64,000 nt of DNA from Acidobacteria bacterium RIFCSPLOWO2_12_FULL_66_21 (GTDB lineage Bacteria; Acidobacteriota; Vicinamibacteria; Vicinamibacterales; 2-12-FULL-66-21), in the NCBI GenBank assembly GCA_001767455.1, contig MELC01000027.1:1-64000 (forward strand), in the 5' to 3' direction. Below are positions 23,199 to 30,502 of this stretch, piece by piece. Position 1 is the stretch's first letter; each line of letters begins with the position of its first letter. Both the position numbers and the translations under genes were made by a program. Below the pieces are notes generated by a model, which did no database searches, was not told where the DNA came from, and saw only the letters and a program-made list of their open reading frames with translations.

Positions 23199-24452
23199 GT
23201 GAGCCAGACGATCTGGACCCGGACGCTGACGTGGTTCGACGGCGTGCGCCGCTCCGTCTGCCGCGTCGGCTGGCCCGCGACGGACAAGGATCGCGCCGCG
23301 GCGATGATCTCAAGCCTGTTCCTGCACATCCACCCGGCGCGGGTCAGCCGCCACGTGCTCAAGCCGACCTACACGTTCGCGCTGGGACTCATCTCGGCGA
23401 TCCTCTTCGTCGTCCTCTCCGTGACGGGGCTGGCGCTGATGTTCTACTACGTGCCGTACCCGGCCGAAGCGTACCGGAGCATGAAGGATCTGCAGTTCGT
23501 CGTCACGTTCGGGATCGTGCTTCGCAACATCCATCGCTGGTCGGCCCACGCCATGGTCGGGGTCGTCTTTCTGCACATGTGCCGGGTGTTCTGGACCGGC
23601 TCGTACAAACGGCCGCGTGAGTTCAATTGGGTCGTCGGTGTGCTGTTGCTGCTGCTTACGTTGGGCTTGTCGTTCACGGGATACCTGCTGCCGTGGGATC
23701 AGCTGGCGTTCTGGGCCATCACGGTCGGCACCAACATCGCGGCGTATGCGCCGGTCGTCGGCGATCAGGTGAAGTTCCTGTTGCTCGGCGGACACGTGAT
23801 TGGCGCGACGACGCTGCTGCGTTTCTACGTCCTGCACTGCGTGATGCTGCCGCTGGCGATGCTGTTGCTCATTTCGCTGCATGTGTGGCGCGTGCGCAAG
23901 GACGGATTGAGCGGCGCCGAGAACCACGCGTCGCCCACCGAGGAGCTGGCCGGCGTCTTCCCGGCGTCCACCAAGACCTATGGACTCATGGCCATCAGCA
24001 AACGGCCGCAAGCCTCCGTTGAGGCGCGCGACCCCAACGATGAAGTGTTCGCCTGGCCTCACCTGCTGTACCGGGAGCTGCTGATTGCCCTGGCGGTGAT
24101 CGTCGTGCTCCACGTCGTCTCGCTGGTGTTCATGGCCCCGCTCGAGGAAATGGCGGACCCGACGCGCACGCCGAACCCGGCCAAGGCGCCGTGGTACTTC
24201 CTCGGGCTGCAGGAGCTGGTGAGCTACTCGGCGCTGGTGGGCGGCGTGGTCGTTCCCACGCTCCTCGCGCTGGCCCTGCTGATCTTGCCCTACCTCGACC
24301 GCGGCACGTCTGGCTCCGGCCGGTGGTTCGCGCCCGAACGTCGTATCGCGAACACGATCTTCACCGCAGTCGCGGCCGCTTTCGTGGGACTGATCGTCAT
24401 CGGCACGTTCTTCCGCGGACCGAACTGGGCGTGGGTGTGGCCATGGAAGTAA
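23199..24452 (+). CDS. Cytochrome b (fused b6/subunit IV type)
   Basis: The 417-residue protein starts with GTG 23199, preceded by GAGGAG at 23187-23192. Heme b ligands lie in two pairs: [19 protein letters not shown] and [20 protein letters not shown]. Quinol-site residues are in the C-terminal half, where [20 protein letters not shown] carries a PEE/PEW-like loop altered to PLEE, followed by [10 protein letters not shown] as in subunit IV. Eight or nine membrane helices can be counted. It is the core of the quinol:acceptor oxidoreductase of this operon. Confidence 0.93.
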
Positions 24453-26455
24453 GGAATATCGCGCCGCTCCGGTTGCATCTCCTGTTCGCGGGGCTCGGCA
24501 TCACGTTCCTGCTGATCTTTTCGTGGGTGCTGTTTCACGAAGAGGCGGCGGAGTGGCGGACGACGCAGGCCCGCTTCCGGCAACTCGAAGGCGACGTCAA
24601 GAACCCCCACCAGCTCGCGGAGGCGGCCAGCGTTGGCGGCCTGCGCCAGGTCTGGCTGCCAGACCTCGGGCGGATCGATCGCTGCGAAACGTGCCACCTC
24701 GGGATCGACGATCCCGCGTTCGCGGGCGCGCCGGCCCCATTCGCGACGCACCCCGGCACCTGGCTGGCGACGCATCCAACCGGTCGATTCGGCTGCACAC
24801 CCTGCCACGACGGGCAGGGGCAGGCGACCGACTATGCCGCCGCGGCACATCGGCCGCAGCCGTTCGTCACGCGGCCGATGCGCCCGCTCGAGACCATCGA
24901 AGCGAACTGCGGGACCTGCCACCGCGCGCTCGACCCGACCGACGCCCCCCGTCTCGCCGAAGGCCGACGCCTGATCGCCGAGTCGGGCTGTTTCGGTTGC
25001 CACGAGATTCCGGGCTTTGAAGGGATGACTTTCAGAGGACCTGCGCTCGACAGCGTCGGGTACAAGGTCCGGCCCGCCTGGCTGGCGTCCTGGCTGAAGG
25101 ACCCCAAGAGCTATCTCGCGCAGTCCAAGATGGGCAACTTCCGCCTGTCTCCCGACGAGATTGGGAGCCTGCAGGGCTTTCTGCTTTCGCAGCGGATGCA
25201 GGTGCCGCTCGACAGCACAGGGGTCGATTGGAAGAACGCGGACACAGCGAACGGGCGGGCGTTGTTCGGCGAGCTCCGGTGCGTGAGTTGCCACGCTGTC
25301 AACGGTCGCGGCGGCACGATGGGCCCGGAATTGACGAACATCGGGGACAAGGTGCGGCGCGACTGGCTCTTCAGCTACCTGAAGGATCCGCATCGTGTTC
25401 AGGCGGACACGCCGATGCTGCAATACCGTCTGAACGATGCTCAATGGCGGGATCTCACAGCGTTCCTGCTCGAGCAGTACAGCTCGGCCGACACCGGCGC
25501 AGAGCCGCCGCCGGTCACGTATCAGGACGCGCGCCTGCTGGCGGCCGGCCGCGCTGTCTTCGAGCGTCGCGGCTGTTCGAGCTGCCACCGTCTTGCGGCC
25601 ATCAAAGAGACCGGACGCATCGGTCCCAGCCTGGCGGGCATCGCCGACCGCGATCCGGACGAGTTGCCGTACGGCGGTAGCACCGTCCGGCACACCACCG
25701 ACAATTACATCTTTCTGAAAGTATTGTTGCCCGACACGCTGGGTCAGCCTTCAGGGATGCCGACATTCGGTTTCTCGCCGGCCGACGCTGCCAGGATCAC
25801 ATTGGCGCTCGCCAGTATCAGGAAATCCGATCTGCCGGCGTCCTACGTTGTTGGTCGTCCGGCGCTCGTGCCGTATCGGCCCGGCGGCAAGTTTGGTGAA
25901 CTGGTCATGCGGTACCGGTGCCTGAGCTGCCACACCGTCGGCGGATTCGGAGGCGACCTGTCGACCGTGCCCCTCGATCGGATTGGCAGTCAGCTCCAGC
26001 GCGACTACCTCGCGAACTACCTGCTCAATCCAGGGGCCGTACGCGTCAGCGTCGAAGCTCGCATGCCTGTTTTCCATCTGTCGCCCGACGAAGCGAAGAC
26101 GATCGCCGACTACGTTTCGATGGTCTTCCTCGATGACCGCTTCGACCGGTACGACACGAAGTTCACCTCCGCCGAAGCGCGGCGCGGGCAGGAGCTCTAC
26201 GGGCAACTCGGGTGTCAGGCGTGCCACCAGCTCGGGACGAAAGGCGGCTACGTGGGACCGGAACTGTCCACGACCGGCGCGCGGCTGAAGCCGGGGTGGA
26301 TTGCGGCATGGCTCTCGACGCCGCAGACATACAAGCCGGGTACGCTGCAGCCCGATTACGGACTCTCGGGCGCGGACGCGCGGGCGCTCACGGCGTACCT
26401 CACCAGTCTGGGTCGGAGCGACGCCGCGAAGGCGCGCGGAGGCAAGACACCATGA
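24443..26455 (+). CDS. Membrane-anchored octaheme c-type cytochrome
   Basis: The 670-residue protein has an N-terminal membrane anchor ([19 protein letters not shown]) and eight CxxCH motifs starting near residues 81, 118, 156, 183, 280, 378, 493 and 591. The first three are in a compact non-standard heme region. The last five sit in repeated mono-heme modules containing GP(x)L and WLKDP or YLLNP, followed by MPxFxLSxxE. The modular pattern suggests growth by duplication of class-I cytochrome domains. It overlaps the cytochrome b gene by 10 bp and probably replaces cytochrome c1, wiring the Rieske protein to downstream carriers. Confidence 0.92.
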
Positions 26456-26896: not shown

Positions 26897-27907
26897 ATGA
26901 AGGCTCTCGCGATGGATGGGCGGTACTCTGGACTGCTCCTGCGAACGCTGAGCGGGCTCTTCATCGCGCTGACCGTCGGCGCGGGAGGAGGGGTGGCGTG
27001 GTTCCTCCTCCGCTACCCGAGGGTCGCTTCCCCTAACCCTGTCCTCATCCACGTCACCGCCGCGCTCATCGAGCGAGGCCGGTATCTTGCCAACCACGTC
27101 GCGGTATGCATGGACTGCCATTCCACGCGCGACTGGGACGCGTTCTCAGGGCCGATCGTGCCTGGAACGGAAGGGGCTGGAGGGCAACGGTTCGGCAAAG
27201 AACTCGGGCTCCCGGGCACATTCTACGCGGCCAACATCACGCCGGCGGGTCTCAGCCAATGGAGCGATGGCGAGATCCTCAGGGCGATCACCGGCGGCGT
27301 CACGCGCCGTGGAAGAGCGATGTTTCCCGTCATGCCGTATCCACGCTATCGCGCGCTCTCGGAAACCGACGCCGAGGCCATCGTCGCGTACATCAGGACG
27401 CTCACACCGGTCGCCCGTGAGATCCGCCCGTCCCAACTCGATTTTCCCATGAACGTGCTGGTCCGAACGCTTCCAGAACCGTTTGTGCCCCGACCGCCGC
27501 CGGATCGCAGCAGCCCCGTCGCGTACGGCCGGTATCTGACCACGATAGCGGGTTGTTCCGCGTGTCACACCCGCTCCGAACGCGGCAAGCCGATCCAGGG
27601 GATGGAATACGCCGGCGGAGCCGCCTTCGACGTTCCACGGGCGGGCCGCGTTCAGTCCGCCAACATCACTCCAGATTCCGACACCGGCATTGGAGATTGG
27701 CCCCGCGCGTTTTTTGTCGCACGCTTTCGTGACCCGACTTCGGCGGGAACACGGCGGCTTCTCCCGAGGGACCGGCGCCTCAATACCATCATGCCGTGGA
27801 CGATGTTTGCGGGAATGACTGACGAGGACCTCGGCGCGATCTACGCATATCTTCGAACGGTCAGGCCTGTCAGGAATCAGGTGGCGCGATTCAGCGGCGC
27901 CAGCTAG
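26897..27907 (+). CDS. Diheme c-type cytochrome
   Basis: The 336-residue protein has an N-terminal membrane helix (LLLRTLSGLFIALTVGAGGG) and two heme motifs, CMDCH (71-75) and CSACH (220-224), each in a similar half. Both halves contain an ANITP motif and a later Met (AMFPVMPY, TIMPWTMF), so the protein is an internal duplication. This fold resembles cytochrome subunits of periplasmic dehydrogenases. It is the last gene of the operon, 13 nt after the lipoprotein. No dehydrogenase catalytic subunit follows, so it may serve this chain directly. Confidence 0.9.
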   Translation: MKALAMDGRYSGLLLRTLSGLFIALTVGAGGGVAWFLLRYPRVASPNPVLIHVTAALIERGRYLANHVAVCMDCHSTRDWDAFSGPIVPGTEGAGGQRFGKELGLPGTFYAANITPAGLSQWSDGEILRAITGGVTRRGRAMFPVMPYPRYRALSETDAEAIVAYIRTLTPVAREIRPSQLDFPMNVLVRTLPEPFVPRPPPDRSSPVAYGRYLTTIAGCSACHTRSERGKPIQGMEYAGGAAFDVPRAGRVQSANITPDSDTGIGDWPRAFFVARFRDPTSAGTRRLLPRDRRLNTIMPWTMFAGMTDEDLGAIYAYLRTVRPVRNQVARFSGAS

Positions 27908-28136: not shown

Positions 28137-29060
28137 CTATCGATGAGGCGCGCGAGGCCTGGAGGCGGCCGGCGATCCGGACAACGTGCTGTCGAACAGT
28201 TGCAGCATCGCGCGGCATGCGGCGCCGTGGTGTTTCTGCGGATGGTCCACGACGAAGACGCCGCGGACCGGGAGCCCGGTCCTGATCCGGAGCTCCGCCA
28301 GGCGGCCGCTGCCGATCTCGTCCGCCGCCGTGCGCCGCGACACCATCCCTACGCCAAGGCCCGCCATCACCGCGCGCTTGATTGCATCCGGATGATCGAA
28401 CGTCATCGTTCGTGATGGCGCGAGCCGGTGGCGATGCCACCAGCGCGACAGCTGGCGGCGGGTGTCGGACCCTTCCTCGCGCACCAGCCACGTTTCGTCC
28501 TTCAGTTGACCCGGCTTGACCGCGCGGGCGCGCGCAAGGAGCGAATCGGGACCGGCGACGACGACGAGCTGGTCCTGCGCAATGACGCGCGACCGAAGGT
28601 CGCCCGACGGCAGCGCCCCTGCGACCACCGCCATGTCGAGATCGTTGCGCGCGACGCGCTCGGCGATCGTATGAACGGGCCCGATCTCGAAGTGCAGGTC
28701 GTAACTCTCATGCTCGCTCCGGTATCGTGCCAGCAGCGGCGGAAGCAGGTACAGCCCGGGCGTGGCGGTCGCGCCGAGTCGAATGCGGCCGATTGCGCCG
28801 CGCGCCACCTCCTGCATGCGCTCGTGGGCGCGGCCGACGGCGGCGAGAATGCGCCGGCACTCCTCCAGAAAGACCTCGCCGGCAACCGTGAGCGACACGC
28901 GCCGCGCCGCACGGTTGAGCAGCCTGGCCCCGATTTCTTCCTCGAGCAGCGCAATCTGGTGGGAGACGGCCGGCTGCGACAGGTTGCACAGGCCCGCGGC
29001 CCTCGAGAAATGCCGCAGCTCCGCGACCGCGACGAACGTCCGCAGCTGACGAAGTTCCAT
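28137..29060 (-). CDS. LysR-family transcriptional regulator
   Basis: The 307-residue protein begins with the classic winged helix MELRQLRTFVAVAELRHFSR followed by LSQPAVSHQIALLEEEIGARL. A linker helix and a LysR substrate-binding domain follow from about 90 (IGRIRLGATATPGLYLLPPL). The binding domain resembles CysB/CbbR-type regulators that sense small anions or metabolites. It is divergent from the truncated-hemoglobin gene, the usual arrangement of a LysR regulator and its target, and a dyad overlaps the facing promoter. Confidence 0.92.
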   Translation of the reverse strand: MELRQLRTFVAVAELRHFSRAAGLCNLSQPAVSHQIALLEEEIGARLLNRAARRVSLTVAGEVFLEECRRILAAVGRAHERMQEVARGAIGRIRLGATATPGLYLLPPLLARYRSEHESYDLHFEIGPVHTIAERVARNDLDMAVVAGALPSGDLRSRVIAQDQLVVVAGPDSLLARARAVKPGQLKDETWLVREEGSDTRRQLSRWWHRHRLAPSRTMTFDHPDAIKRAVMAGLGVGMVSRRTAADEIGSGRLAELRIRTGLPVRGVFVVDHPQKHHGAACRAMLQLFDSTLSGSPAASRPRAPHR

Positions 29061-29225: not shown

Positions 29226-29699
29226 ATGACTCGGATGACGCGATGGGGAATGACTGCAGTACTGGCGGCGATGGCGGTTGCCCTCGTACCCGGCCTGGCA
29301 ACGGCCCAGGACAACCCGAAGCCGCTCTACAACCGGCTCGGCGGCGTATACAACATCGCCACCGTCGTGGACGATTTCATCGAGCGGCTGCTGGTCGACG
29401 ACACGCTCAACGCGAACCCGGCAATCAAGGAGGCGCGTGGCCGCGTCCCGAAGGCCGGTTTGAAGTTCCATGTCACGGCGCTCGTCTGCGAGGTGACGGG
29501 CGGCCCGTGCAAGTACACCGGCCGGCCGATGAAGGAATCGCACCAGCACCTGAACATCACCGAGCGGCAGTGGGAGGCGATGGTGGCCGACTTCCGCAAG
29601 ACACTCGACAAGTTCAAGGTTCCGGCCAAGGAGCAGGCGGAGCTCATCGCGATCGTCGGAAGCACCAAGAAGGACATCGTGAAGGCGTCGACGAACTAA
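29226..29699 (+). CDS. Secreted group I-like truncated hemoglobin
   Basis: The 157-residue protein has a signal peptide (AVLAAMAVALVPGLATAQ) before a 2/2 globin: LYNRLGGVYNIATVVDDF, then GGPCKYTGRPMKESHQHLNI with proximal His106. The B10 position that is Tyr in typical group I proteins (VVDDFY) is Ile52 here (VVDDFI), which would change distal-pocket chemistry. Two Cys (88, 95) could form a disulfide in the periplasm. GGAGGA before ATG 29226 supports the start. Roles in NO, O2 or peroxide chemistry outside the cytoplasm are inferred. The methyltransferase gene follows after 20 nt, so the two share a transcript. Confidence 0.88.
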   Translation: MTRMTRWGMTAVLAAMAVALVPGLATAQDNPKPLYNRLGGVYNIATVVDDFIERLLVDDTLNANPAIKEARGRVPKAGLKFHVTALVCEVTGGPCKYTGRPMKESHQHLNITERQWEAMVADFRKTLDKFKVPAKEQAELIAIVGSTKKDIVKASTN

Positions 29700-29719
29700 T
29701 CCGCACGGAGGTCACCACA

Positions 29720-30502
29720 ATGGGAGTCACCTGTCCAGTCGATTTCGATGTTGCCGGCGTGCGCTCGGAGATCCAGACGATCTACTCGCGGCTGGCGGCT
29801 TCGCCCGCGGGTGACTTCCATTTCCACCGCGGGCCGGCCTACGCGGCCGCGGTCCTTGGTTACGACCCTCATGAGCTCGCGGCGCTGCCGCTGGCTGTGA
29901 CCGCGAGCTTCGCGGGCGTCGGGAACCCTCACGCCGGCGATCCCATTCCTTCCGGCGCAGTGGTCGTTGACGTCGGCTGCGGCGCGGGCACGGACCTGCT
30001 GCTGGCTGCGCGCCGAACCGGTCCGCGAGGCCGTGCGATCGGCGTGGACATGACCGAGGCGATGCGCCGGCGCGCCGCTGACGGCGCCGCCGCCTGCGGG
30101 CTGCGCCACGTGGACGTTCGGGCGGGGGACGCGACGCGTCTGCCGGTAGACGATCGCAGCGTTGACGTCGTGATCTCCAACGGCGTCCTGAACCTGGTGC
30201 CGGAGAAGGCGCGGGCGATCGCCGAGATGGCCCGCGTCCTCAAGCCCGGCGGACGCGTGCAGATTGCCGACATCACTATCGGGGAGCTGCTGCCCGACAG
30301 CGCGCTGCGCGACATCGATCTCTGGACCGGTTGAATCGCCGGCGCTCTGCTGGAAGCAGAGCTCGTTGCGGCTTTCCGGGACGCGGGCTTCGACCGGGTC
30401 GCGATCACCGCGCGCTTCGACTGCTTCGCCGGCACGTCGAAAGAGCGGACGGCGCGCCGGTACGGCGTTCAAGGCGTCAACCTGTCCGCCGTCCGTCCGT
30501 GA
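29720..30502 (+). CDS. ArsM-like methyltransferase, probable selenoprotein (in-frame TGA)
   Basis: ATG 29720 follows GGAGG at 29707-29711. The SAM-binding motif VVVDVGCGAGTDLLLAAR lies at 81-98, then ISNGVLNLVPEKARAIAEMA. Reading stops at TGA 30332-30334 directly after RDIDLWTG, but the same frame goes on with IAGALLEAELVAAFRDAGF and RFDCFAGTSKERTARRYGVQ to TGA at 30500-30502, a normal family C-terminus. In arsenite-methyltransferase-like proteins the residue at this point is the conserved Cys of a WxxC(I/L)xGAL motif. Nine nt after the TGA is a perfect 7-bp stem with loop UGGAA (30344-30362), SECIS-like. I call it a 260-residue protein with selenocysteine 205. The alternative is a nonsense mutation, but the conserved tail argues against decay. 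selA/B/C/D are not in the window. Confidence 0.62.
30344..30362 (+). promoter_or_regulatory. SECIS-like hairpin downstream of in-frame TGA
   Basis: GCTCTGC, loop TGGAA, GCAGAGC form a perfect 7-bp stem. The loop begins 16 nt after the TGA and has G at its second and third positions. Bacterial SECIS elements are a short stem-loop just after the UGA with a G early in the apical loop. No thermodynamic calculation was done. Confidence 0.55.

What the first reader, a model, noticed from the sequence alone, without database searches (positions are those of the whole stretch)
30332..30362. In-frame TGA at the catalytic cysteine of an ArsM-like methyltransferase, followed by a SECIS-like hairpin
The frame that starts at 29720 meets TGA after RDIDLWTG. 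It then continues in the same frame for 56 codons with a well-formed family C-terminus (IAGALLEAEL, RFDCFAGTSK, RRYGVQGVNL). The codon sits where arsenite-methyltransferase relatives have a conserved Cys that binds the arsenic. A perfect 7-bp stem with loop UGGAA starts 9 nt after the TGA and its loop starts 16 nt after it, with an early G in the loop, as bacterial SECIS elements require. A selenol at that site would be a new twist on As, Se or Te methylation. All positions were read directly; the Cys equivalence is recalled family knowledge.
Basis: partly seen in the sequence, partly recalled or inferred. Interest (0 to 1): 0.9.

Follow-up and report, generated by a model that had tools for sequence, protein, structure and literature searches.

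The report
Selenocysteine in an ArsM-like methyltransferase
This bacterium very probably reads a 'stop' codon as selenocysteine in the active site of an enzyme related to arsenic methyltransferases; selenium at this position is already known in related enzymes, but this widespread, unnamed branch has lost the other arsenic-gripping residues, so its substrate is probably not plain arsenite.

Summary
The frame 29720-30502 has one in-frame TGA (codon 205). In 66 homologous loci from several phyla the same codon is TGA; in 13 it is TGC/TGT. The hairpin behind it covaries, its loop starts 16-17 nt after the TGA, and Cys forms mostly lack it. Its codons show almost no wobble change where the rest of the gene shows about 50%. 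selA, selB, selC and selD are all in the genome; SelB accompanies the TGA form (21 of 22 genomes) but rarely the Cys form (1 of 12). So the TGA very probably encodes selenocysteine, in the column of CmArsM Cys224.

Two corrections. It is not new in kind: Sec in this column (motif UxxG) is listed as experimentally verified for an arsenite methyltransferase, and three NCBIfam selenoprotein models share it. And it is probably not a canonical arsenite methyltransferase: the Cys72 and Cys174 equivalents are Val and Gly throughout the family, and the genome has a separate canonical ArsM. It is a stand-alone, single-Sec branch below the cut-off of every NCBIfam model it matched. Substrate unknown; a soft substrate held by one selenolate is my best inference.

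The parts
29720..30502 (+). Selenoprotein gene: ArsM-like class I SAM methyltransferase, 260 aa with Sec at 205
   Evidence: AlphaFold2 model pLDDT 91.1 with ArsM structures as top matches
30332..30334 (+). TGA codon 205, read as selenocysteine (column of CmArsM Cys224, motif UxxG)
30344..30362 (+). SECIS-like hairpin: stem 30344-30350 / 30356-30362, loop UGGAA 30351-30355
30500..30502 (+). True stop codon (TGA)
   Evidence: homologues end within a few residues of here
29707..29711 (+). GGAGG, probable ribosome binding site 8 nt before the ATG
   Evidence: read
29918..29920 (+). Codon for Val67, where CmArsM has As-binding Cys72
   Evidence: V in 70 of 71 family members, I in one
30182..30184 (+). 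Codon for Gly155, where CmArsM has As-binding Cys174
   Evidence: G in 71 of 71
29819..29821 (+). Codon for His34 of the FHF motif, invariant in the family, candidate second active-site residue
   Evidence: 71 of 71; role inferred
29226..29699 (+). Secreted-looking truncated globin, 20 nt upstream of the methyltransferase ATG; possible operon partner
   Evidence: PF01152 E 1.7e-12; near the family gene in two other loci; operon inferred
28137..29060 (-). LysR-type regulator, divergent; candidate regulator of the methyltransferase gene
   Evidence: orthologues 76-101 nt upstream, divergent, in five other loci

Best explanation
The gene encodes a 260-aa selenoprotein. SelB, with Sec-tRNA and the hairpin that lies 10-28 nt behind the codon, recodes UGA-205 as selenocysteine (strongly supported by comparative evidence, not shown experimentally). 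The protein is a SAM-dependent methyltransferase of the ArsM fold in which the selenolate stands where ArsM has Cys224 (by sequence alignment; fold by prediction). Because the other two As ligands are Val and Gly in the whole family, the enzyme should hold its substrate through a single Se bond, perhaps with the invariant His34 nearby, and pass it the methyl group of SAM. A one-ligand soft substrate is the likeliest: an already methylated or thiol-capped metalloid, or a chalcogen such as selenide, telluride or a persulfide (inferred). In lineages without the Sec machinery Cys stands in for Sec (seen as a pattern).
For: Same-column TGA in 66 loci and TGC/TGT in 13; residue 205 invariant as U/C in 71 aligned members. 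Hairpin in all 67 TGA forms, mean energy -11.1 against -5.2 kcal/mol in Cys forms; 91% of pair cells formed, 70 double-change cells against 23 in shuffles with 0 of 500 as high, 46% formed in Cys forms. Hairpin codons: 0-11% third-position difference to relatives, elsewhere about 40-65%. It meets the published bSECIS model (loop 3-9 nt, stem 4-16 bp, G in the first two loop positions, 16-37 nt from UGA; PMC13188914). tRNA-Sec, SelB, SelA and SelD in the same genome. SelB in 21 of 22 Sec-form and 1 of 12 Cys-form genomes, Fisher p 5e-7. Alignment to CmArsM: 205 = C224, 67 = C72, 155 = C174. Fold: 4fr0 Z 26.3, 6cx6 Z 26.0, 5evj Z 25.1, next family 21.4. CmArsM C174A and C224A are inactive on both iAs and MMA; iAs binds three Cys, MMA two, DMA one (PMC3877260).
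Against: No protein, activity or selenium evidence. One Sec-form genome (L090, G518) shows no SelB, though it may be incomplete. TGA forms are nearly all from metagenome-assembled genomes. The substrate inference rests on missing residues; a thiol such as glutathione or a second protein could supply the other ligands. Neighbouring genes are not conserved enough to name a pathway.
Confidence: 0.8

Rival explanations
1. It is a selenoprotein, but a true arsenite methyltransferase: Sec205 plus small thiols (glutathione, or the protein's Cys5) replace the missing Cys ligands.
For: Best fold and sequence matches are ArsM/AS3MT; NCBIfam calls two fused Sec relatives 'arsenite methyltransferase'; a relative with UxxG is listed as an experimentally verified selenoprotein arsenite methyltransferase.
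Against: Cys72 and Cys174 equivalents are V and G in practically all members; Cys174 is essential in CmArsM; Cys5 is found in only 39 of 71 aligned members; the genome already has a canonical ArsM that passes the ArsM cut-off (L017).
Confidence: 0.15
2. It is a selenoprotein, but Sec205 is a redox or methyl-relay residue (Se-methylselenocysteine intermediate, or a selenenylsulfide with persulfide or thiol substrates) in sulfur or selenium metabolism.
For: A minority of loci have sulfane-sulfur genes close by: ArsR-rhodanese regulator (7 loci), MBL-rhodanese (4), type III sulfide:quinone reductase (4), MFS exporter (10).
Against: Most loci lack these neighbours; no background rate was measured; the window's own neighbours are a globin, a LysR regulator and cytochromes.
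Confidence: 0.25
3. TGA is an ordinary stop: the gene is a truncated methyltransferase, or the TGA is a sequencing error or a fresh nonsense mutation.
For: A 204-aa protein still holds the SAM-binding domain.
Against: The frame behind the TGA is conserved in dozens of genomes with much the same pattern of change by codon position as before it; Cys forms read straight through; full Sec machinery present.
Confidence: 0.02
4. TGA is read through as another amino acid (for example Trp) by near-cognate decoding or a reassigned code.
For: None beyond the open frame.
Against: The column alternates with Cys, never Trp; the gene itself ends at TGA; the genome has SelB and tRNA-Sec.
Confidence: 0.01

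Closest known systems
Selenoprotein arsenite methyltransferase (NF008823 with UxxG, WP_011987699.1; Fomenko et al. 2007 as cited in PMC13188914)
   Same: ArsM-type methyltransferase with one Sec in motif UxxG, the motif of the window protein (U-I-A-G).
   Different: Its sequence could not be read here, so whether it keeps the other two As cysteines is untested. The window protein is below the NF008823 cut-off (199 against 263 bits).
NF041537 arsenite methyltransferase/AhpD domain selenoprotein (and NF041536, DUF2284 fusion)
   Same: Members read here (L120, L121) have the same site: CGVGNP, SNGV, then U-x-G-G, so they too lack the Cys72 and Cys174 equivalents.
   Different: They carry a fused second domain with more Sec and lie in a separate clade (100/100); the window protein has no fused domain, has FAGVGNP and the FHF motif, and scores 206 against a cut-off of 510.
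NF047649 methyltransferase/UXPK-star double selenoprotein
   Same: Methyltransferase with UxxG; aligns with the window protein almost from end to end.
   Different: Has a second Sec in a C-terminal UXPK motif, which the window protein lacks; 182 bits against a cut-off of 460.
CmArsM (4fr0, 4kw7, 6cx6), CrArsM (5evj), human AS3MT (8xt7)
   Same: Fold and SAM site; residue 205 is in the column of CmArsM Cys224.
   Different: Cys72 and Cys174 replaced by Val and Gly; lacks the extra C-terminal part of CmArsM and CrArsM (260 aa against 377-387).

Membership tests
Bacterial selenoprotein (UGA recoded as Sec) | In-frame UGA aligned with Cys in homologues (Cys/Sec pair) | tested here: met
   66 TGA and 13 TGC/TGT in one column
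Bacterial selenoprotein (UGA recoded as Sec) | bSECIS hairpin: 3-9 nt loop, 4-16 bp stem, G in first two loop positions, 16-37 nt after UGA | tested here: met
   criteria
Bacterial selenoprotein (UGA recoded as Sec) | selA, selB, selC and selD in the genome | tested here: met
   tRNA-Sec 59.5 bits, confirmed by ARAGORN; SelB 347.8 bits; SelA 534 bits; SelD 359.6 bits
Bacterial selenoprotein (UGA recoded as Sec) | Selenium in the full-length product | not testable with these tools
   needs 75Se labelling or mass spectrometry
Arsenite S-adenosylmethyltransferase (ArsM/AS3MT) | SAM-binding class I methyltransferase domain of the ArsM fold | tested here: met
Arsenite S-adenosylmethyltransferase (ArsM/AS3MT) | At least 3 of the 4 Cys at CmArsM 44, 72, 174, 224 (criterion of PMC5552862) | tested here: not met
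   224 is Sec, 72 is Val, 174 is Gly; the only Cys before residue 67 is Cys5
Arsenite S-adenosylmethyltransferase (ArsM/AS3MT) | NCBIfam NF008823 curated cut-off, 263 bits | tested here: not met
   199.3 bits; the canonical ArsM of the same genome scores 362.5
Arsenite S-adenosylmethyltransferase (ArsM/AS3MT) | Methylates As(III) | not testable with these tools
   needs an enzyme assay
NCBIfam fused ArsM-type selenoproteins (NF041536, NF041537, NF047649) | Methyltransferase with UxxG in the ArsM Cys224 column | tested here: met
NCBIfam fused ArsM-type selenoproteins (NF041536, NF041537, NF047649) | Second Sec-bearing domain or UXPK tail and score above the model cut-off | tested here: not met
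   no second in-frame TGA before the stop, no extra domain; 185, 206 and 182 bits against 575, 510 and 460

The most novel reading that the evidence does not exclude
A widespread, unnamed selenoenzyme family that has exchanged the three-cysteine arsenic site of ArsM for a single selenolate and methylates a different soft substrate (selenide, telluride, a persulfide or a capped metalloid): a methyltransferase whose substrate chemistry depends on selenocysteine.
Probability: 0.35. Interest if true: 0.75.

Novelty: new member of a known kind. Interest (0 to 1): 0.45.

Why it matters
A standard gene caller will end this gene at the TGA and lose its active-site residue and last 55 residues. The family spans several phyla, exchanges Sec for Cys largely in step with the Sec machinery, and lacks the rest of the arsenic site, so the name arsenite methyltransferase, given to its fused relatives, is probably wrong for it. 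Sec and Cys forms exist side by side, which makes it testable why a methyltransferase would pay for selenium.

Tried and rejected
tRNA-Sec candidates other than C36:220901: C42 is tRNA-Ser and C5 tRNA-Leu by ARAGORN. Rfam has no match to the hairpin at any useful score; this says little, as bacterial SECIS elements are diverse. The hairpin by itself (z -1.86) was judged insufficient; the case rests on comparison. A shared operon: naive gene calls were muddied by shadow ORFs; the better analysis found only minority neighbours. Plasmid collection: no relative at E 1e-40. The first NF041537 phylum search failed on the handle and was repeated. Haft and Tolstoy 2025 is not in the library, nor did searches turn up Fomenko et al. 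2007; both are cited only through PMC13188914. L081 is frame-disrupted in my reading and was left out of the counts. Cys5 as a second ligand: not favoured, as it is not conserved across the family.

Full report
Observation. The frame from ATG 29720 contains one in-frame TGA at 30332-30334 and continues for 55 codons to a TGA stop at 30500-30502. Nine nucleotides behind the TGA stands GCUCUGC-UGGAA-GCAGAGC (30344-30362). Folded alone, the hairpin is only mildly unusual (z -1.86), so the claim has to be decided by comparison.

Comparison. Three genomes of the same family have the gene at 67-78% identity, each with one TGA in the same place. In the class, 22 of 193 genomes (the window's own included) have a match at E 1e-60 or better and every one has exactly one TGA. 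A scan of named genomes gave 80 loci from Acidobacteriota, Myxococcota, Gemmatimonadota, Pseudomonadota, Planctomycetota, Actinomycetota and others. Of these 66 have TGA, 13 have TGC or TGT in that column and one is frame-disrupted. In the alignment of 71 members the column is U or C without exception. The protein tree nests a nine-member Cys clade among Sec forms, as expected if Sec was exchanged for Cys there at least once; the tree is drawn with a midpoint root, so the direction is an inference.

SECIS. All 67 TGA sequences can form a stem of at least 5 bp (55 of them 7 bp or more) at the required distance with a G early in the loop; only 4 of 13 Cys forms have any such stem. Across the 66 distinct TGA sequences 91% of pair cells are standard pairs, with 70 cells changed on both sides (for example C-G against G-C at the sixth pair), against a shuffle mean of 23 and 0 of 500 shuffles as high; register-shifted controls give 0-26; the Cys forms reach 46% paired. 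Between the window and its close relatives, codons 206-214 show 0-11% differences at the third position, whereas codons before and after show about 40-65%. This is the mark of selection on the RNA. The geometry fits the published bSECIS model (PMC13188914).

Machinery. The genome has tRNA-Sec (59.5 bits, anticodon TCA by ARAGORN), SelB (347.8 bits over a cut-off of 242), SelA (534 bits) and SelD (359.6 bits, itself with an in-frame TGA). Among 34 genomes checked, SelB is found in 21 of 22 with the TGA form and in 1 of 12 with the Cys form (Fisher p 4.8e-7). Recoding is therefore supported on independent lines; the direct proof, selenium in the product, is lacking.

What the protein is. Pfam and NCBIfam place it among SAM methyltransferases nearest ArsM. 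The AlphaFold2 model (mean pLDDT 91.1, pTM 0.90) has CmArsM and CrArsM as best matches (Z 25-26; next family 21.4). The alignment with CmArsM puts Sec205 at Cys224, Val67 at Cys72 and Gly155 at Cys174. Val67 is kept in 70 of 71 members (one Ile) and Gly155 in all 71. In CmArsM all three Cys are needed for arsenite, and Cys174 and Cys224 for methylarsenite (PMC3877260). A published criterion for ArsM, three of four conserved Cys (PMC5552862), is not met. The same genome holds a canonical ArsM with all three (L017, 362.5 bits against the cut-off 263). So the window protein works like a methyltransferase of the ArsM fold, but is not shown to be, and probably is not, an arsenite methyltransferase.

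What is already known. A 2026 review lists arsenite methyltransferase with motif UxxG among experimentally verified prokaryotic selenoproteins, and three further families with UxxG that carry additional Sec (PMC13188914). The window motif is U-I-A-G. I read two genuine NF041537 members (L120, L121; both above the cut-off): they too have GVGNP, SNGV and U at these positions. The reduced arsenic site is thus a property of the wider group. The window family falls outside their clade, stands alone without a second Sec, has its own FHF motif with invariant His34, and falls below the cut-off of every NCBIfam model listed for the window protein and for seven diverse members. It is a new member of a known kind.

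Mechanism. Shown by comparison: the signature of UGA recoding with a SECIS, and Sec/Cys equivalence at the ArsM Cys224 site. From general knowledge: a selenolate is a softer and stronger nucleophile than a thiolate, and in ArsM this residue holds arsenic next to the SAM methyl group. Inferred: with one soft ligand left, the enzyme holds a substrate that needs one Se or S bond, such as a capped or already methylated metalloid or a chalcogen, and methylates it. Context gives only hints. A LysR regulator orthologous to the one at 28137-29060 is divergent and 76-101 nt upstream of the gene in five other loci; in the window a globin gene lies between. ArsR-rhodanese, MBL-rhodanese, type III sulfide:quinone reductase and MFS genes occur near a minority of members, which points weakly to sulfane sulfur or selenium rather than arsenic. 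No background rate was measured for this.

Verdict. Observation confirmed; Sec reading very likely (about 0.97 in my judgement); substrate open. Interest 0.45: a solid, widespread, apparently unnamed selenoprotein subfamily with a puzzling active site, but of a kind already described.

Noticed in passing
window 29226-29699 (+): Truncated globin (PF01152) with a signal-peptide-like N-terminus directly upstream; 78-82% identical homologues lie near the family gene in L041 and L042.
   Followed up: partly
window 28137-29060 (-): LysR regulator whose orthologues stand divergently 76-101 nt upstream of the methyltransferase in five other Acidobacteriota loci.
   Followed up: partly
L130 (own genome C42:51949-52878): The genome's selD itself has one in-frame TGA, so selenophosphate synthetase is probably a selenoprotein here too.
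   Followed up: no
L090 / genome G518: Gemmatimonadota record with the TGA form and a good hairpin but no SelB found; incomplete assembly or loss of the machinery.
   Followed up: no
L067 / genome G499: Caballeronia arationis has the Cys form although SelB is present.
   Followed up: no
L081:3063-4328, L077:4405-5919: Sulfide:quinone reductase-like genes, best NCBIfam match a selenoprotein subtype of type III, next to family members.
   Followed up: no
window 24446-26455 and 26897-27907 (+): Multi-haem c-type cytochrome genes upstream.
   Followed up: no
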